Source: Deltaproteobacteria bacterium (GTDB taxonomy: Bacteria > Desulfobacterota > Syntrophia > Syntrophales > UBA2210). From it: a stretch of 63,782 nucleotides of DNA. The notes below the pieces were generated by a model. The model did not search any database and was not told the DNA's origin. It worked only from the letters and a program-made list of their open reading frames with translations. Numbering within the stretch: the stretch's first letter is position 1; each line of letters opens with the position of its first letter. The stretch lies in contig JAFGGB010000112.1 of the NCBI GenBank assembly GCA_016930775.1, positions 1-63,782 of the forward strand, in the 5' to 3' direction. Shown piece after piece: positions 1 to 12,253 of this stretch. Both the position numbers and the translations under genes were made by a program.

Positions 1-526
1 GCTGCATCTCTTGGGGGATGCGGTCCGAGGGTGGGGCTTCATAATGGACCTTTTCATGGCCGATGGGCCCGGAAACGACCTGCATGGGTCTGTCGCCGCG
101 CCACTGGCCCACGGCGATCCGGTATAAACCTGAAAACCCAGTAGGAAACAGGGTGGCATGCCAACCGAAGAGACGCTCCTCCGTGAGCGGTGCGGCATGG
201 TTCGTCGAGGCATCCAGGAGGACCGAGACAAGACCGTCGACATAGCGGTCTACCGGAAGGCCCGCAGCCGGAAGACCCAGTCTGCGGGCAACCGATGACC
301 GCACCGCATCCACATTGAGACGCTCGCCTTCGATGGCAGCGGTCTTCAGAGTTTCTTCCGCGAGGATTTCCATCTGGGCATGATTCTCTAGAGGCAATCC
401 CAGGGAGGCGATCCTGCCCAGGAGTTTTCCCTGCATAAGTCTGCATTGTCCCACCTTCGGGAGGATGCTTTCGTTATCCCACTGGAAACGGGTCCACCCC
501 GGACGCTGCCACAGATACTGTGTCAT
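1..526 (-). CDS. Fic family protein with N-terminal DUF4172 domain (partial, 3' end beyond window)
   Basis: The first 175 residues are visible, starting MTQYLWQRPGWTRFQWDNES, the typical opening of DUF4172 in Fic proteins. Residues about 1-85 match DUF4172 and the start of the Fic fold follows (LFGWHATLFPTGFSGLYRIAVGQWR). The motif TAAIEG near residue 60 fits the (S/T)xxxE(G/N) inhibitory helix of class II Fic enzymes, in which the glutamate blocks the ATP site. The catalytic HPFxDGNGR loop would lie beyond position 1, so activity cannot be judged. Members usually transfer AMP from ATP to target proteins. The ATG at 526 is preceded by an AAAGGA ribosome site and a good promoter. No antitoxin gene lies upstream, as expected when the inhibitory helix is built in. 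Confidence 0.85.
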   Translation of the reverse strand, partial: MTQYLWQRPGWTRFQWDNESILPKVGQCRLMQGKLLGRIASLGLPLENHAQMEILAEETLKTAAIEGERLNVDAVRSSVARRLGLPAAGLPVDRYVDGLVSVLLDASTNHAAPLTEERLFGWHATLFPTGFSGLYRIAVGQWRGDRPMQVVSGPIGHEKVHYEAPPSDRIPQEMQ

Positions 527-587: not shown

Positions 588-940
588 CAGGAATTGAGAG
601 CGCAAGGCGCTGTCATGTAAAGAGAGGATTCAGAGGTTATGGGGTGTATTTATGCAGTGCATTCAGCAATTTCGTTTGCAAATCCTGACATAATCTGTCG
701 GCTTTCGTAAATGAAAGGGATGAAGGGATGCCCTTGAGTTAGATCCAGGAGCCTTCAAATAATCTCCGCAAATTGTGCGGCGAATCTTTGGGTTTTCGTG
801 AGCTGGGCCTGTCACTAAAATGCAACCGTCCTAACCGAAAATTTTTCCAGAGAACCCGACCCGATCCAAGACGTTCTTTCTAACCATCTGAGATACAAGC
901 GATTAATTTATGATGAGGAATCACCTATTTAGGTTTTCAA

Positions 941-1006
941 ACTTCAAATCCAGTGTGGGGGGCTAGTAACCTCCCAGGTGGGTTCGATTCCCATGCACTT
1001 CCGCCA
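941..1006 (+). tRNA. selC: 3' fragment of a selenocysteine tRNA gene (att-site relic)
   Basis: The segment begins inside the anticodon loop (CTTCAAA, anticodon TCA) and continues with the 3' anticodon stem TCCAG. A long variable arm follows, whose GGGGGG pairs with CCTCCC. The T arm is GTGGG-TTCGATT-CCCAT, and an eight-base acceptor strand GCACTTCC, G and CCA close it. An eight-base acceptor with a five-base T stem is specific to bacterial tRNA-Sec. The 5' half (acceptor GGAAGTGC, D arm, 5' anticodon stem) is absent upstream, so this is not a working gene. Integrative elements often use the 3' end of selC as attB, so this is best read as the displaced 3' copy left at one end of an insertion. 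Confidence 0.8.
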
Positions 1007-1105
1007 ATTTATTCGCATATTTCGATTTTTATCAAGGAAATTTCTTTAACCTGTTTAACCTTCATGAAATTAGTGGATTGAATAGGATTGGAAGTACGAG
1101 AAGAG

Positions 1106-1169: not shown

Positions 1170-1775
1170 CTATATCATTCTCCGAAGCCCTGCCAAGCCT
1201 GCTAGACTAAAACCGAGAAGCAACAGGGCGGCGGGTTCTGGAACGGATTCAACCGAAAATCTGCCCCAGTTTGGTACAGGAGTCTGGTGCCAAGCCTCAC
1301 CTTCTATTCCACCGCCAATAGTTCCGTAGTTCTTGGGACTCTCGCCTATGTCATGGACCAATCTCTCCACCAAGAGATCAGTATGAAACCATAGATTGTA
1401 ATGCGGTCCGTTGATTCCTCCCTTCTCTGTAAGATCGTATCCAAACAATTGGATTAAATTGAGAGGAGTAATTAAGGGAACAAAAACCGAGGCATAATAA
1501 AAGTCGTTACTCCAATCTGGAGGCGTTAAATGTACTAGCGACCCACCTAACCCTTCATTTACTAAATTCCATCCTTCGGGAGAAAGCGCAAATAGAGCTG
1601 CCTGCATAGAGATGTCTAATTGATCGTTAATGTCCACAATATCAAATATCTGACTTATAGTAGGAAAAGTTGCCGGAGCATAACATTCAAGAGTTATTTT
1701 TACTGGAGATGCAAACGCAATCGTTGTCACAAAAAATACAGAAATGACGCATAAAACCGAAAAATATCTCTTCAT
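1170..1775 (-). CDS. PEP-CTERM sorting domain protein, secreted
   Basis: This is a 201-residue exported protein. A signal peptide (MKRYFSVLCVISVFFVTTIAFA) precedes a mature region with no family I recognise. The C-terminus has VPEP, a hydrophobic stretch (AALLLLGFSLAGLAGL) and a short basic tail RRMI, the tripartite PEP-CTERM signal that exosortase cleaves when anchoring proteins to the outer surface or matrix. The ATG at 1775 is chosen because GGAGG lies just upstream; an upstream TTG would break into that site. No exosortase or polysaccharide cluster is nearby, so it is an orphan substrate. A sigma-54-like promoter lies upstream and a terminator follows, so it is probably a single-gene unit. 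Confidence 0.85.
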   Translation of the reverse strand: MKRYFSVLCVISVFFVTTIAFASPVKITLECYAPATFPTISQIFDIVDINDQLDISMQAALFALSPEGWNLVNEGLGGSLVHLTPPDWSNDFYYASVFVPLITPLNLIQLFGYDLTEKGGINGPHYNLWFHTDLLVERLVHDIGESPKNYGTIGGGIEGEAWHQTPVPNWGRFSVESVPEPAALLLLGFSLAGLAGLRRMI

Positions 1776-1843
1776 AGCGACCTCCAACTGTCAGGTTATT
1801 GAAAAAGATCTTTTTAAAATATCTATAGATTATGACATTTTAA

Positions 1844-2073: not shown

Positions 2074-2494
2074 TTAATAGCTTATTTCCTCCTTTCCCTC
2101 CAACAACCTTCTCTTTGCATCGAGCTGAACCGATGCATAGCGTTGAACGCTTTCTCGCCTCCGATGATCCGTCAACATCTGCACCTCGTCGAGAGAATAA
2201 TGCTTCTCGTTGATATATTGGGAACAGCTTGAATGCTTCAGGCCGGAGTACATGTCGATCTCCTCTCCGACCTCTCTACATGCTCTATGCCATAAATCAG
2301 CCATGCAGTGATGCGTGCAGTGTTTCCCCTCGATCTTCCCTCTCCTGTTCGCGAAAAAATATGGACTGTCGATATAGACCGGCATCGACTTCGTGATCTT
2401 TCAAAACTCCGAGTGACAGGGAATCAGATGCTGTTTCTTTGTCTTCGTATGCTCAACAAGTTCTTTTAGGGAAAACAGGAGAATCCTAACTCTG
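2074..2494 (-). pseudogene. Decayed tyrosine recombinase (phage-type integrase), C-terminal part
   Basis: The last 103 codons keep the shape of an integrase catalytic domain: GLKHSSCSQYINE (usual LRHT box), SLDEVQMLTDH (usual LGH box) and a following RYA with the likely nucleophile tyrosine. Upstream, in the same frame and across a TGA stop, the reading continues as ELVEHTKTKKQHLIPCHSEF, matching the segment with the conserved beta-strand lysine. The N-terminal arm-binding domain and the first catalytic arginine are not found, and no start codon fits. The gene is therefore truncated and interrupted. It lies 1.1 kb from the selC 3' fragment, which supports a lost integrative element here. Confidence 0.65.
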
Positions 2495-2498
2495 AATG

Positions 2499-2507: not shown

Positions 2508-2654
2508 ATTCAGCGGCAGGTCAGCTATAGTCTGCCCTCCAGCGCTTTATCGGAGGAATTGCTCATATTGTTTCCTACCAGATCTGCAGAGCCTATCCGA
2601 GTACGCCACCGTAAATGGGAGGTTTATATCAAAAACTTGTTGAGGGAGGTATTT

Positions 2655-3617
2655 ATGAAACGAATGGGAGCTGTTATTGCAGTATTGTTAACCGTCGGCA
2701 TAATTTTTAATGCAGGATTGGCCAAGGCGGACAACTATCCTACGAAATCTATTAAAGTCGTGGTGCCCTATTCGGCTGGCGGCGGCACCGACACCATTGC
2801 GCGAGCAATAGGCAAATTCGTAGAATTAAATAAACCCTTTGTTGTTACAAACATAACGGGAGGAGGGGCCAAAATCGGGACTATGGAAGTCGCCGGTTCA
2901 AAACCCGACGGCTATACGCTGCTGATGCATTCCGTGACAGCCGTCGCCTCTGGCTATCATGCGGGACTGTATGATACCAAGATCTGGAAAGATCTCAAGC
3001 CCGTAGCAAGCATGACCTCTATGGTGGGCTGCATTGCCGTAAAGGCGGATTCGCCCTATAAAACCATCGGCGATTTAATTGCCTTTGCAAAAGCCAACCC
3101 TGGAAAGGTGTCGGCAGGCGTATCCGGCATCGGCGGAGGCGCCCATATCATTGTAGCTGTTTTCGCCGATGTTGCGGGGGTTAAATTGAATTATGTGCCC
3201 TTTGCCGGAGCTTCCAACACAAGGGCGGCCCTTATGGGCGGACATGTGGATATGGCGGCGGCTTTTATATCCGAGGTCTATGATTTTGTTAAATCGGGCA
3301 ATCTCAGAGTGCTGGCCACAACCGGTTCCGCAAGATCATCCGACCTGCCTGATGTTCCGACATTTCAAGAATCAGGGATAGACTTCGTATTGCATCACAG
3401 AAACGGAATTTTCGCACCCAAAGGAACCTCGGACGACGTTATTAAAGTTTTGGATGACGCCTTACAGCTTGTGGCTGACAACAAGGAATTCCAAAATGTC
3501 TTGAAAGGCATGCTGATAGATTCAGCTTATCTTTCTTCCGATGATTTTACGGTTGAACTGGAAAAACTCGATAAAATGATAGAACCGATTGCTCCTCTCA
3601 TTAGGGCCAAAAAATAA
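2655..3617 (+). CDS. tctC: Tripartite tricarboxylate transporter substrate-binding protein (TctC/Bug family)
   Basis: This is a 320-residue periplasmic binding protein for a secondary, ion-driven TTT transporter that takes up carboxylates. A signal peptide ends at about residue 25 (GLAKA-DNYPTK). The mature protein opens with the family pattern YPTKSIKVVVPYSAGGGTDTIAR, continues with VTNITGGGAKIGTMEV and KPDGYTLLM, and ends normally. The ATG at 2655 is preceded by GGGAGG, and upstream in-frame starts would add a sequence with no signal peptide. The membrane partners tctB and tctA follow on the same strand after 302 bases. The substrate cannot be told from sequence; Bug proteins bind citrate, tartrate, aromatic acids and amino acids among others. 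Confidence 0.88.
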   Translation: MKRMGAVIAVLLTVGIIFNAGLAKADNYPTKSIKVVVPYSAGGGTDTIARAIGKFVELNKPFVVTNITGGGAKIGTMEVAGSKPDGYTLLMHSVTAVASGYHAGLYDTKIWKDLKPVASMTSMVGCIAVKADSPYKTIGDLIAFAKANPGKVSAGVSGIGGGAHIIVAVFADVAGVKLNYVPFAGASNTRAALMGGHVDMAAAFISEVYDFVKSGNLRVLATTGSARSSDLPDVPTFQESGIDFVLHHRNGIFAPKGTSDDVIKVLDDALQLVADNKEFQNVLKGMLIDSAYLSSDDFTVELEKLDKMIEPIAPLIRAKK

Positions 3618-3775
3618 CCATTACTTTAAAGGGCTTCTTCATCTATTCTACATGCACCGAGGGAGTCAGTTAACGGAAAAGGGGAATACAGGCGACGGAG
3701 CGCTTGTCTTCAGCGAAAAGAACGAAGAATTGCCCCTATGCTGCAATCTATAAAAATGCCAGCGTTCATAAGAAA

Positions 3776-3815
3776 CTCAAGGATTCCCTGCAGTCTGCTG
3801 CAGGGAATCCTTGAG
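3776..3815 (+). repeat. Perfect 18-bp inverted repeat between tctC and tctB
   Basis: Arms 3776-3793 and 3798-3815 are perfectly complementary around a four-base TCTG loop, and CTGCAG lies in each arm. The following bases are TGTTGGGAA, so there is no T tract and a standard intrinsic terminator is unlikely. Position after the binding-protein gene suggests an mRNA-stabilising or read-through-limiting hairpin that keeps tctC more abundant than tctBA. Confidence 0.7.
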
Positions 3816-3919
3816 TGTTGGGAATATGCTTGATATTGCGGTTGCTGTATCGAAAAACAGGGCGAGAATAAAATATCGCTTCGTCAATATTTTACTATAC
3901 ACAGTGCAGTGAGGCAGCA

Positions 3920-4399
3920 ATGTTAAAGTCCAATAAAGCTGTTGCGATTTGTTTTTTTGTCCTCAGCATTTTCACCTATTATGGGAGCACGTTAATACCC
4001 GAGGCGATTTACAGCGAGGGCGCTGCGGGGCCGAGGCTGTTTCCTCAGTTATGGTCGATTTTCATCGCCTTCTTGAGCATCATGCTCTATGGGCAAAGTT
4101 ATCTCAAGGAAAAGAAAAACAAAGACGACGCATCGAAAAAAGAAAAATCGACGCGGCGGGAAGAAAAAAATGTTTTTTTTATGCTGATCGCCGCCATTGG
4201 CTATATCGTCCTCATGAAACCTCTTGGATTTGTCATTTCTACCTTTCTTTTCTCTCTTGCGACCATTGGGCTTCTCGGCGGCGAGAACATCAAGAATAAA
4301 TATTCTGTGGTGCTCATATCAGCCATCGCCACAATCGTGACATATGTCTTGTTCGCTCAAGTATTGGATGTCTTTTTACCTACCGGCATATTCATGTAA
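3920..4399 (+). CDS. tctB: Tripartite tricarboxylate transporter TctB, small membrane subunit
   Basis: This 159-residue protein has about four hydrophobic segments: residues 7-23, 38-55, about 88-108 and 125-150. A highly charged cytoplasmic loop (KEKKNKDDASKKEKSTRREEK) lies between the second and third, as is typical of TctB. It forms the inner-membrane complex with TctA, encoded 25 bases downstream. TctB is poorly conserved, so assignment rests on topology, length and order in the operon. The ATG at 3920 has GTGAGG just upstream. Confidence 0.8.
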   Translation: MLKSNKAVAICFFVLSIFTYYGSTLIPEAIYSEGAAGPRLFPQLWSIFIAFLSIMLYGQSYLKEKKNKDDASKKEKSTRREEKNVFFMLIAAIGYIVLMKPLGFVISTFLFSLATIGLLGGENIKNKYSVVLISAIATIVTYVLFAQVLDVFLPTGIFM

Positions 4400-4424
4400 A
4401 GGGCCACGATAAGGAGGAACATCC

Positions 4425-5924
4425 GTGGAATATCTATCATACGGCTTGCATAACATTGTTCATGTCAATTCATTGTTGCTTATCGCGGCGAGTGTTCTTT
4501 TCGGCGTTATTTTCGGGGCCATACCCGGCCTAACGGCTACGCTTGGCATAGCGCTCCTGCTTCCTTTTACATATGAAATGGGGCCTTACAACGGCCTTGC
4601 CTGTTTGCTGGGCATCTACGTGGGCGCTACGTCGGGAGGATTAATTTCTGCCACTTTAATCGGCATTCCCGGAACAGGAGCCTCGATCGTCACGACATTT
4701 GACGGATACCCCATGGCGCAGCAGGGAAAGGCCAATCAAGCTCTTTCGCTGGGGTGCTTTTCCTCCTTTGTGGGAGGTGTGATCAGCATGATTATGTTGA
4801 TGCTAATTTCCCCCCTGTTGGCGCGATTGGCACTTAAGTTCGGACCGTGGGAGTATTTTTCATTGGGCATTTTTGGTTTGACTATCGTCGTTTCCATATC
4901 GAGCAAGAACTTGATCAAGGGCCTTTTAGCCGGCAGTCTCGGCGTCGCCATAACCTTGCCCGGGCAGGATCCCCTGGTAGCCATACCGCGGTACGCCTTT
5001 GGTTTTACTCAGATGGAAGGCGGCTTCGCTCTTCTTCCCACTCTTCTTGGCTTCTTTGCAATTACCCAGTTGTTTGGCGACGTCGAATCCGTGGCGGAAC
5101 AATTCAGCGTGATTCGGTTCGATCCAAAGTACAGAATCTTTCCTCCTCTTGCGATTGTACGAACGTCTATAGGAAATTTCATACGGTCGTCCTTGCTTGG
5201 AACGTGGATCGGCATACTGCCGGGCGCCGGCGGCAGCATCGCCTCTTTTTTAGCCTATGATCAGGCAAAGAAGGCTTCAAAAACGCCGGAAGCATTTGGA
5301 ACGGGACATTATGAAGGAGTCATTGCATCGGAAACGGCCAACAACGCCGTAACGGGAGGAGCGCTCATTCCTTTGATGACTCTGGGAATACCCGGAGACA
5401 TGGTTACGGCGGTGATTCTAGGAGGGCTTCTTATTCACGGTTTGCGGCCGGGTCCCATGCTCTTTCAAGATAACGCTGATGTCGTAGGTTCCATATTCGT
5501 TGCATTATTCATCGCCAATGTGATGATGTTTATACTGCAAAGCGGCCTTATGAGATTTTTTGCGAAAATTATTTTGGTTCCCAAACATATACTGCTGCCG
5601 ATAGTCGGCATCATGTGCGTCGTGGGAACCTATTCGGTTAACAATAGAATTTTTGATCTCTGGGTGCTCATAATCTTTGGATTCGTCGGCTACATTTTGA
5701 TAAAAAACAAATTCAACCTGGGTCCCATAGTGTTGGGGTACATATTGGGACCGCTGATTGAAACGAATTGGCGACTGGGCCTGATGGCGGCACGAGGCGA
5801 TTACTTGCCCTTTCTTACCCGCCCTTTGTCGGCGTTGCTGCTTGTGATGGCCCTGGGTTCGATTTTATTTCCCGTCATAATGTCGAAATTCGGAAACAAG
5901 AAGAATCATGCGCAGCGAGCTTGA
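4425..5924 (+). CDS. tctA: Tripartite tricarboxylate transporter permease TctA
   Basis: This 499-residue large permease has about twelve membrane segments. Family signatures are visible: the N-terminal GAIPGLTATLGIALLLPFTY, GATSGGLISATLIGIPGTGAS, a second inverted-half loop WIGILPGAGGSIASFLAYDQ, and ALIPLMTLGIPGD. The GIPG loops are thought to line the substrate path. The start is GTG at 4425, six bases after AAGGAGG. It completes the tctC-tctB-tctA operon and should drive carboxylate uptake with Na+ or H+. The next gene is convergent. Confidence 0.92.
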   Translation: MEYLSYGLHNIVHVNSLLLIAASVLFGVIFGAIPGLTATLGIALLLPFTYEMGPYNGLACLLGIYVGATSGGLISATLIGIPGTGASIVTTFDGYPMAQQGKANQALSLGCFSSFVGGVISMIMLMLISPLLARLALKFGPWEYFSLGIFGLTIVVSISSKNLIKGLLAGSLGVAITLPGQDPLVAIPRYAFGFTQMEGGFALLPTLLGFFAITQLFGDVESVAEQFSVIRFDPKYRIFPPLAIVRTSIGNFIRSSLLGTWIGILPGAGGSIASFLAYDQAKKASKTPEAFGTGHYEGVIASETANNAVTGGALIPLMTLGIPGDMVTAVILGGLLIHGLRPGPMLFQDNADVVGSIFVALFIANVMMFILQSGLMRFFAKIILVPKHILLPIVGIMCVVGTYSVNNRIFDLWVLIIFGFVGYILIKNKFNLGPIVLGYILGPLIETNWRLGLMAARGDYLPFLTRPLSALLLVMALGSILFPVIMSKFGNKKNHAQRA

Positions 5925-6235: not shown

Positions 6236-7918
6236 CTATTTGGCTGGGGGCGACCATGGAATCGGCGGTCTTGCAGAACCATCCGTTTTGACGTCGACGA
6301 CCACTGGAATATCGGCCTTCAAAGCCTCTCTCAACGTTTCAGCAAGCATATCCGGCGATTCTATGCGATACCCCATACATCCCATATCTGTCGCAACTTT
6401 CGCAAAATCAATCGTATTGAATTTATAGAGTTCGCCCCTTTTGCCGGATCTTGCCCCATAAGCGGCATCAACGCCGATGACGCTTTGCGCTAAACGGCTA
6501 TTATTGTTAATCACAGTAATCGTTTTGATTCCATATCGTTTGGCGGTCTCGAGTTCGGAAAGATGATACCAAAATGCTCCATCCCCAGTAAAACATATAA
6601 CCGGCCTATCGGGAGCGGCGCATTTAACGCCCAAAGATGCCGGGAATGCCCAGCCCAATGAACCAGCTGCCCGAACAAAGCGTTGATTTGGATGGGAAAA
6701 GAAGACGAAATTGCTTGCCCATACGGCAGAGTAACCCGTATCGGCAACAAGCACCGCGTTTGTCGGAAGCATATTCGAAATATCACTGCAAAGGCGTTCG
6801 GGTCTTATAGGAACAGCCTGAGAACGGCAAAGGCATTCTATGGACTTTGTCCAGTCTTTCACTTCGGACAAAGCATGCTTTGCCCAATCATTTTTTTTGT
6901 CAATGTCTTTAATCAACTTCAGGAGACCCTGAAGAGATGTTTTCGCATCCCCTAACAAACAGAGTTTGTTTCGAAAATTTCTTCCCAATTCCGACGGGTT
7001 GATGTCTATTTGAATGATGTTCGTTTGTGATCTAGGCAGAGTCCAGTCGTTGGTGACCTGATCCCCGGCACTGCACCCAATGAAAATGACGAGGTCCGCT
7101 TTCGAAACTAATTCATTTGAAACTCCGCAAGAATAAGAACCGACAACTCCTATGCTCAGAGAATGGTTGTCGGGGATAACGCCCTTCCCATCATTGGAGG
7201 TTGCAACAGGAATTGAAAGCGCTTCCGCTAGCTGAAGAATTTCGGATTCGGCCGAAGAAGCTATTGCGCCTCCTCCTGCTATAATGACAGGACGTTTGGC
7301 CTCTTCTAAATGCATAACAGCCTTGTTAAAATATTCGTTTTCCGGCGAAAATCGATAAGCAGGATAACGTGCGAATTGTTCTTCGATAACTGGAGCGCAA
7401 TTGATTTCAGCAGTTTCAATGACTTCGCCGGCAAATCCCAAAAGATCGAGATGAACCGGTCTTGGAGCTCCTGTTGTCGCTTCACGAAATGCTTGGGACA
7501 AGATGAATGGCAGTTGCTCAATCGCATCTACATTTACGTTATATTTGGTAACTGCGTCATACATAGGTCCGTGAATTATTTCCTGGTAAGCATTACGATA
7601 TTGGGCAATCGGTTTCTTTCTTCCGGTTATTGCAATCACCGGGGAATGCGCAAGAAATGGGTCCTGCAATCCAGCGCACAGGTTTGCCGCGCCAACCGAT
7701 TGGGCCATGCAAATACCCGGTTTTCTGCTCACCCTTGCATATCCGTCGGCCATATAAGCTGCAGCTTTTTCTGAATGCGTCAAGATTCGCTTAATATTCA
7801 ACTCTTCAAGTTCAACCAGCGTCTTTCTCAAAATCGCCATAACTAGAAAAACGTGCGTAACTCCATAACCATTGAGCGTTTCAGCAATAAATCTGGCTCC
7901 AGACATCATAGTTTCCAT
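6236..7918 (-). CDS. Thiamine diphosphate-dependent enzyme, acetolactate synthase large-subunit-like
   Basis: This 560-residue enzyme has the three-domain layout of the acetolactate synthase/benzoylformate decarboxylase family. The N-terminal pyrimidine-binding domain carries the catalytic glutamate (HSEKAAAYMADGYAR, Glu50). The central domain has RPVIIAGGGAI. The C-terminal domain has the GDG...NN metal-diphosphate motif (GDGAFWYHLSELE ... VINNN). The usual G-x-P-G after GVxHVF is replaced by VFLVMAILRK, so it is not a standard IlvB, and no small regulatory subunit (ilvN) is nearby. It could be a 2-oxo acid decarboxylase or carboligase with an unknown substrate. The ATG at 7918 has AAAGG nine bases upstream. 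The next upstream gene on this strand is an aminotransferase. Confidence 0.8.
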   Translation of the reverse strand: METMMSGARFIAETLNGYGVTHVFLVMAILRKTLVELEELNIKRILTHSEKAAAYMADGYARVSRKPGICMAQSVGAANLCAGLQDPFLAHSPVIAITGRKKPIAQYRNAYQEIIHGPMYDAVTKYNVNVDAIEQLPFILSQAFREATTGAPRPVHLDLLGFAGEVIETAEINCAPVIEEQFARYPAYRFSPENEYFNKAVMHLEEAKRPVIIAGGGAIASSAESEILQLAEALSIPVATSNDGKGVIPDNHSLSIGVVGSYSCGVSNELVSKADLVIFIGCSAGDQVTNDWTLPRSQTNIIQIDINPSELGRNFRNKLCLLGDAKTSLQGLLKLIKDIDKKNDWAKHALSEVKDWTKSIECLCRSQAVPIRPERLCSDISNMLPTNAVLVADTGYSAVWASNFVFFSHPNQRFVRAAGSLGWAFPASLGVKCAAPDRPVICFTGDGAFWYHLSELETAKRYGIKTITVINNNSRLAQSVIGVDAAYGARSGKRGELYKFNTIDFAKVATDMGCMGYRIESPDMLAETLREALKADIPVVVDVKTDGSARPPIPWSPPAK

Positions 7919-11047: not shown

Positions 11048-12253
11048 TTACATCATACTCATGAGTCTCCAGGATACGGCATCGATGAAACCTTCCGTCG
11101 TCTCATAACCTGCCGGTTTTGGATCCATGAGGGTAACAAGGTCCTTGGTGACAATGCCCGATTCGATGCATTGAATGACGGCCTGTTCGATTTTCTCGCC
11201 GAAGGAAGTCACGTCCGGAGCGTTGTCCAATTCGCCTCGCTTCCTGATGCCGCCGGTCCAGGCAAAGATGGAAGCGACAGAGTTCGTGCTGGTGGGATTT
11301 CCCTTGAGGTGCTCGTAGTAGTGACGCCGCACTGTTCCGTGGGCCGCCTCATATTCGTATTTGCCGTCCGGGGACACCAGCACTGACGTCATCATTCCCA
11401 GGCTGCCGAATCCTGCGGCGATTACATCGGAAAAAACGTCTCCGTCGTAGTTGCTGACCGCCCAGAGAATGTTGCCTTCCTGCTTCATGATCTGGGCGGC
11501 GGCGTCATCGATGAGCATATAGCGGTACTGGATGCCGGCATTTTCGAAGTCCGATTGCCGGGCAGTCACTTCCTCAGCGAATATGTTTTTGAAGCTTCCA
11601 TGATAGATTTTGCTGATGGTATCCTTCATGGAGAACCAGAGTTCATACTTCTCGCCAAGGGCGCAATTGATGCAGGACTGTGCAAACGAACGAATGGAAT
11701 TCTCCAGGTTATGGAATCCCATTGCAACGCCCGGTCCCGTGAATTCGTGGACAAGAAGCCTGTCCTCAAGACCGTCGGCCGATCGATAGACAAGCTCGAC
11801 CGTGCCCGGTTTATCCACGGCCATCTCCACGCACTGGTAAAGGTCGCCGTAGGCATGCCTGCCTATTATGATGGGTTTCTTCCAGCTGCGCACAGCCGGA
11901 GAAATGTTCTTCACCAGTATGGGCTTTCGAAAAACGGCGCCGTCGAGGATGGACCGTATCGTCCCGTTCGGCGACAGCCATGCCTTCTTGAGCCCAAATT
12001 CCCCGACCCTCTCGTCGTCAGGGGTGATCGTCGCACACTTTACGCCCACGCCGTACGCTTGTATCGCTTTCGCTGCATCGATGGTGACTGCATCGTCCGT
12101 TTCATCGCGCTTCTGCACGCCCAGGTCGTAATACTTTAGATCAACATCCAAATACGGAACAATGAGCTTCTCTTTGATCATGGCCCAAATGATTCGCGTC
12201 ATCTCGTCGCCGTCTATTTCCACAATCGGGGTTCTGACTTTCAGCTTGGCCAT
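11048..12253 (-). CDS. icd: NADP-dependent isocitrate dehydrogenase, eukaryotic-type (dimeric)
   Basis: This 401-residue TCA enzyme oxidatively decarboxylates isocitrate to 2-oxoglutarate. It follows the eukaryote-like type II branch rather than the E. coli type: [13 protein letters not shown] at the N-terminus, the substrate loop [12 protein letters not shown], the metal-binding YDGDVFSDV, and the NADP-binding HGTVRRHY. The start at 12253 is chosen over upstream codons because AAGGAG lies nine bases before it. The enzyme supplies 2-oxoglutarate and NADPH. It appears to be a single-gene unit; the upstream neighbour ltaE ends 187 bases away with a possible promoter between. Confidence 0.93.

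What the first reader, a model, noticed from the sequence alone, without database searches (positions are those of the whole stretch)
941..1006. selC 3' fragment: end of an integrative element at the tRNA-Sec gene
A clean 66-base 3' part of tRNA-Sec, starting in the anticodon loop, is present without its 5' half. Elements that integrate at selC leave exactly such a displaced 3' copy. By its orientation the element, and the intact selC, should lie to the left, so the Fic gene would be island cargo. It also implies the host makes selenoproteins.
Basis: partly seen in the sequence, partly recalled or inferred. Interest (0 to 1): 0.62.

Follow-up and report, generated by a model that had tools for sequence, protein, structure and literature searches.

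The report
Junction of two selC integrative elements
The 66-base piece is a real displaced tail of the selenocysteine tRNA gene, left where a mobile DNA element (with a Fic gene inside it) ends, and directly beside it lies the decayed start of a second, unrelated family of elements that also inserts into this tRNA gene, so the locus is a stack of mobile elements rather than one island next to ordinary host DNA.

Summary
Confirmed: window 941-1006 is a clean 3' part of tRNA-Sec (65/66 identical to an intact relative), joined at the anticodon loop to unrelated DNA. That DNA (810-940) is itself conserved: in three other genomes of the order a homologous right end (74-82% over aligned stretches) is joined at the same point to a displaced selC tail, and in two of them intact selC is followed by a convergent tyrosine integrase. 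The contig starts at base 1 and intact selC lies in an assembly gap. selA and selB are present.

997-1095 is the left end of a second family ("F-type", arm repeats TTTAACCT), followed by a PEP-CTERM gene and an integrase remnant. F-type ends sit at tRNA-Sec and tRNA-Ser genes in at least 27 of 155 genomes, mostly without integrase, sometimes in arrays with T-loop tRNA fragments. Many carry an inverted copy of the selC anticodon arm ("iCore", degenerate here); my best guess is a recombinase site. New member of a known kind.

The parts
2..526 (-). DUF4172-Fic gene, 3' part cut off by the contig start; cargo next to the right end of element X
   Evidence: Pfam PF13776 E 1e-27; 53% identical to a Fic protein beside a selC fragment in G130; the 5' end of a Fic gene of the same family lies beside the X right end and selC fragment in G066
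810..940 (+). conserved non-coding right end of element family X
   Evidence: 74-82% identical over the aligned stretch to G130, G066 and G090, each joined to a displaced selC 3' part at the same point
941..1006 (+). displaced 66-bp 3' part of selC (attR of X, anticodon-loop crossover)
997..1095 (+). F-type module: tRNA 3' end plus left end of a T-loop-type element
   Evidence: nhmmer 75 bits with a model whose seed alignment included this copy; independently 89% identical to the end of contig C214
1045..1063 (+). two tandem TTTAACCT repeats, putative integrase arm-type sites (usually three copies, 10-11 bp apart, in relatives)
   Evidence: sequence; alignment of 37 modules
1068..1095 (-). degenerate iCore: position where relatives carry an inverted copy of the selC anticodon arm
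   Evidence: 10 of 26 mismatches here, against 0-4 in 18 of 47 modules
1170..1787 (-). PEP-CTERM protein gene, recurrent cargo of F-type elements
   Evidence: Pfam PF07589 above cut-off; PEP-CTERM genes also in G020, G067, G068, G077 F-type loci
2074..2496 (-). remnant of the F-type tyrosine integrase (C-terminal third, one internal stop)
   Evidence: 66% identical to the G068 integrase over 138 aa with 1 TGA; PF00589 E 3e-5, just below cut-off; groups with G082, G068, G077 integrases, support 1.000

Best explanation
The window starts inside a tandem stack of integrative elements at the tRNA-Sec gene. An older F-type element entered selC at the T loop (F arms, PEP-CTERM cargo and an integrase, now decayed, right of 1006). 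Later an X-family element entered selC at the anticodon loop: the integrase joined its attP to selC, the element supplied a new 3' part so that selC stayed functional, and the old 66-bp 3' part, with the F-type end still attached, was pushed to the far end of X, where it lies at 941-1006. X carries the Fic gene. Shown: the fragment, the conserved X right end, the F-type end and integrase remnant, and the same architecture in relatives. Inferred: the order of the two insertions, that X is complete, that selC is intact in the assembly gap, and the integrase action itself.
For: Fragment sharp at 941 and present in relatives' selC. X right end conserved with the fragment in three other genomes of two other families. 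In G130 and G090 the intact selC is followed directly by a convergent integrase, 70% identical to each other. Fic next to the X right end in G066 too. The F module at window 997-1095 recurs at selC, at tRNA-Ser and at T-loop fragments. A complete F-type element is seen in G082: selC, F, cargo, HU, integrase, right end, T-loop fragment, 12.4 kb. The window integrase remnant belongs to that clade.
Against: No intact selC, X left end or X integrase is in the assembly of this genome. C214, whose end starts one base after a selC CCA by homology, carries another F-type left end, so which element now follows intact selC is unresolved. No T-loop fragment marks the far end of the window's F-type element within 14 kb.
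Confidence: 0.87

Rival explanations
1. A single island: X to the left, and the DNA right of 1006 is simply the native host flank of selC.
For: The fragment by itself looks exactly like this; F follows intact selC in several relatives.
Against: F also follows tRNA-Ser genes and T-loop fragments, in several copies per genome; family f5 genomes have selC with no F at all (L015, L016, L022); an integrase remnant of the matching clade lies 1 kb away.
Confidence: 0.07
2. Assembly chimera or random duplication of selC DNA, not a recombination product.
For: The genome is a 231-contig draft and selC itself is missing from it.
Against: The same left flank plus fragment occurs in three independent genomes.
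Confidence: 0.03
3. An invertible selC: recombination between the selC anticodon core and the inverted iCore flips the 3' half of the gene, switching selenocysteine decoding off, and the window shows such a product.
For: iCore is an inverted 20-26 bp copy of the selC anticodon arm about 65-75 bp past the CCA in several genomes.
Against: None of 63 selC 5' halves in the fetched loci is joined to anything but its own 3' half; iCore also sits at tRNA-Ser genes, where inversion would do nothing; the window fragment is not followed by a selC 5' half.
Confidence: 0.02
4. A split or trans-spliced tRNA-Sec gene whose 3' half is the working copy.
For: No intact selC in the assembly.
Against: moeA, next to selC in relatives, is cut by a contig end, which explains the absence; relatives have one-piece selC.
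Confidence: 0.01

Closest known systems
Genomic islands in tRNA genes with displaced 3' fragment (Islander, PMC4383910)
   Same: tDNA fragment in the right orientation, tyrosine integrase in relatives; anticodon (A) and T-loop/junction (J) sites are both known subsites
   Different: Two families using two subsites of one tRNA-Sec gene are stacked here; the intact gene is not in this assembly
Tandem ssrA islands of Dehalococcoides (PMC3146451)
   Same: Arrays of islands downstream of one RNA gene, separated by short direct repeats of its 3' end, about half without an integration module, with proposed accretion or helper mobilisation
   Different: There a serine recombinase and tmRNA; here tyrosine integrases, tRNA-Sec and tRNA-Ser, and an extra inverted selC copy
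Tycheposons (named in PMC11389934, PMC10872708)
   Same: tRNA-anchored, tyrosine recombinase, cargo-carrying
   Different: Different tRNAs, hosts and gene content; no sequence relation was tested
selC islands of enterobacteria (LEE, SHI-2; own knowledge)
   Same: Integration at selC
   Different: Host order and cargo differ; not compared here
Integrons and CALINs
   Same: Integrase-less cassette-like units in arrays with repeated sites
   Different: No IntI or attC shown; units are bounded by tRNA fragments and arm repeats, often hold several genes, in mixed orientation

Membership tests
tRNA-gene integrative element (tyrosine integrase) | 3' tDNA fragment in the orientation of the gene, ending at CCA | tested here: met
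tRNA-gene integrative element (tyrosine integrase) | intact copy of the tRNA gene at the other end | not testable with these tools
   contig ends at base 1; selC lies in an assembly gap. Intact selC is present in relatives G130, G066, G090
tRNA-gene integrative element (tyrosine integrase) | integrase next to the intact tRNA | tested here: inconclusive
   met in G130 and G090; not found in this assembly
tRNA-gene integrative element (tyrosine integrase) | conserved element end joined to the fragment | tested here: met
   window 810-940 in four genomes
F-type T-loop elements (defined here) | arm repeats directly after the tRNA CCA | tested here: met
   window 997-1095
F-type T-loop elements (defined here) | integrase of the G082/G068/G077 clade pointing at the tRNA | tested here: met
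   remnant at 2074-2496
F-type T-loop elements (defined here) | right end with T-loop fragment | tested here: not met
   none in the first 14 kb, so the window holds at most a decayed left part
F-type T-loop elements (defined here) | inverted selC-like iCore | tested here: inconclusive
   10 of 26 mismatches, no better than the best of 200 shuffles
Integron / CALIN | IntI integrase and attC sites | not tested
   no attC or IntI model was run

The most novel reading that the evidence does not exclude
The iCore, an inverted copy of the selC anticodon arm kept inside F-type ends at both tRNA-Sec and tRNA-Ser genes, is a working second recombination site. The resident integrase, with a co-encoded HU protein, uses it and the T loop to build and shuffle arrays of mostly integrase-less gene cassettes, so that a tRNA gene plays the part that attI plays in integrons.
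Probability: 0.1. Interest if true: 0.72.

Novelty: new member of a known kind. Interest (0 to 1): 0.4.

Why it matters
It shows the tRNA-Sec gene of one bacterial order (named carriers are Syntrophaceae and deltaproteobacterial MAGs) as a layered landing site where two unrelated integrase families use two different subsites of one gene. The F-type ends, with a conserved inverted piece of the same tRNA gene and a spread to tRNA-Ser, give a testable case of how integrases change tRNA target and how integrase-less cargo persists. For annotation, it warns that DNA beyond such a fragment need not be host DNA.

Tried and rejected
selC 5' half searched by pattern with up to 3 mismatches: none. OFF-state or inverted selC: none in 63. 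Stronger decay of iCore at tRNA-Ser than at selC: no difference (Mann-Whitney p 0.93). RNA pairing of iCore with the anticodon arm in a read-through transcript is predicted to be strong but cannot explain the tRNA-Ser copies. Integron reading: at least one short arm+iCore unit looks like a decayed full unit (G066 L110 against G067 L099), so attC-like status was not claimed. Module on viral contigs: no exact match. Rfam Xoo2 match at 1104-1200 is below its threshold and taken as chance. Fold of the fragment not informative. Literature searches found no description of these elements; the library holds open-access papers only.

Full report
Observation. Window 941-1006 reads ACTTCAAATCC...CACTTCCGCCA: the anticodon loop (TCA), variable arm, T arm, 3' acceptor strand and CCA of tRNA-Sec, without its 5' half. 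It differs at one base in 66 from the intact selC of relative G015. Alignments to intact relatives stop at 941. No tRNA is called there and no second copy beyond 19 bp exists in the assembly.

The left side. The contig is the whole window, so the element body cannot be followed beyond base 1. But about 130 bases left of the break are conserved. G130 aligns over window 810-1014 at 82%, G066 over 821-997 at 77.5%, G090 over 810-1006 at 74%, and G044 shares the motif GGAATCRCCT just before its fragment. In G130 and G090 the intact selC is followed at once by a convergent integrase, 70% identical between the two. This is what attL and attR of one mobile family, here called X, should look like, with crossover at the anticodon loop, one of the two tRNA subsites tabulated for thousands of islands (PMC4383910). 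The truncated Fic gene at 2-526 has the DUF4172 domain; the 5' end of a related Fic gene lies beside the same right end in G066, and a full one lies between two selC fragments in G130.

Where is selC? selA (598 bits) and selB (383 bits) are present; selD only as weak or contig-end matches. In the relatives read, selC follows moeA. Here moeA is cut after about 67 residues by the end of contig C230, and the selC 5' half is nowhere in the assembly. The end of contig C214, read backwards, starts at the second base after a selC CCA by homology and carries a second F-type end with a good iCore. The likeliest reading is an assembly break at the repeated selC 3' part.

The right side. 997-1095 belongs to a module found right after selC in several families and also right after tRNA-Ser genes (GCT, GGA) and after 23-30 bp T-loop fragments of both tRNAs. 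The search model was seeded with seven copies including the window's own; the independent evidence is BLAST: an 89% match to C214 and matches in at least 27 of 155 genomes at E 1e-5 or better. The module consists of two to three TTTAACCT repeats 10-11 bp apart, which look like integrase arm sites, and iCore. Right ends of such elements carry CTTTAACCTTAAC before the T-loop fragment. G082 has a complete one: selC, F, cargo, HU, full-length integrase, right end with T-loop fragment, 12.4 kb. In the window the F end is followed by a PEP-CTERM gene (1170-1787) and the last third of an integrase with one stop (2074-2496), whose nearest relatives are the F-type integrases of G082, G068 and G077. Most F-type copies have no integrase of that clade: it was found in four genomes plus a remnant in G020. 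Several integrase-less units keep a broken HU gene, so they look like decayed descendants, perhaps moved by helpers; mobility was not shown. Cargo includes PEP-CTERM proteins repeatedly, and CsgG-like, LysM and outer-membrane-barrel proteins.

The iCore. In 18 of 47 modules the end of F carries a copy, in inverse orientation, of the selC anticodon arm with at most four mismatches in 26, against seven or more for 200 shuffles of each sequence. GGATTTGAAG is the best-kept part, also at tRNA-Ser genes. CTTCAAATCC resembles the T-loop core TTCAAATCC, so a third core-type site for the same integrase is my best guess; it is a guess. The window's own iCore is degenerate. The inversion-switch idea found no support.

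Comparison. The finding is a standard attR at a tRNA gene, with an unusual neighbour. Tandem islands with tRNA or tmRNA 3' repeats, many without integrase, are known, best from Dehalococcoides (PMC3146451). I found no description of these two families. Named carriers of the module are Syntrophaceae or deltaproteobacterial MAGs.

Verdict. Observation confirmed; interpretation right about the left side, incomplete about the right. Interest is moderate; the open point worth following is the iCore.

Noticed in passing
L134 10453-11625, L106 5332-6132, L051 6322-7497, L052 5676-6764, L136-L141: All 12 relatives of the T-loop-type integrase family that cover box II, and the window remnant, have Lys where tyrosine recombinases have the second catalytic Arg (SGLK/AGLK instead of HxxR).
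   Followed up: partly
L104 7555-7824, L106 7446-7715, L134 11651-11917: An HU-family gene lies directly downstream of the F-type integrase (in L106 of an integrase stub), and 3' parts of it persist in integrase-less units.
   Followed up: partly
L055 7566-8202 (G044): A 0.7 kb stretch between intact selC and an anticodon-type fragment carries what looks like a DUF433/DUF5615 toxin-antitoxin pair (recognised by eye, no domain search).
   Followed up: no
L099 about 6822-6890 and 11160-11226 (G067): A 45-bp hairpin-like repeat (GGGTATAATACC...GCATACCC) precedes two F modules.
   Followed up: no
selC-adjacent modules in several genomes: iCore shares the host selC allele at the variable anticodon-stem base (A with A, G with G) in the copies compared by eye, and a rare T allele in G149.
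   Followed up: partly
window 2643-5924: Three genes that look like a tripartite tricarboxylate transporter (TctC, TctB, TctA), read from sequence only.
   Followed up: no
L053 and L054 (G010): Two different intact selC copies in one draft genome; may be two strains.
   Followed up: no
L147 7686-7751 (G152): A selC 3' part plus F lies right behind a second moeA-like gene, with a selC copy on another contig.
   Followed up: no
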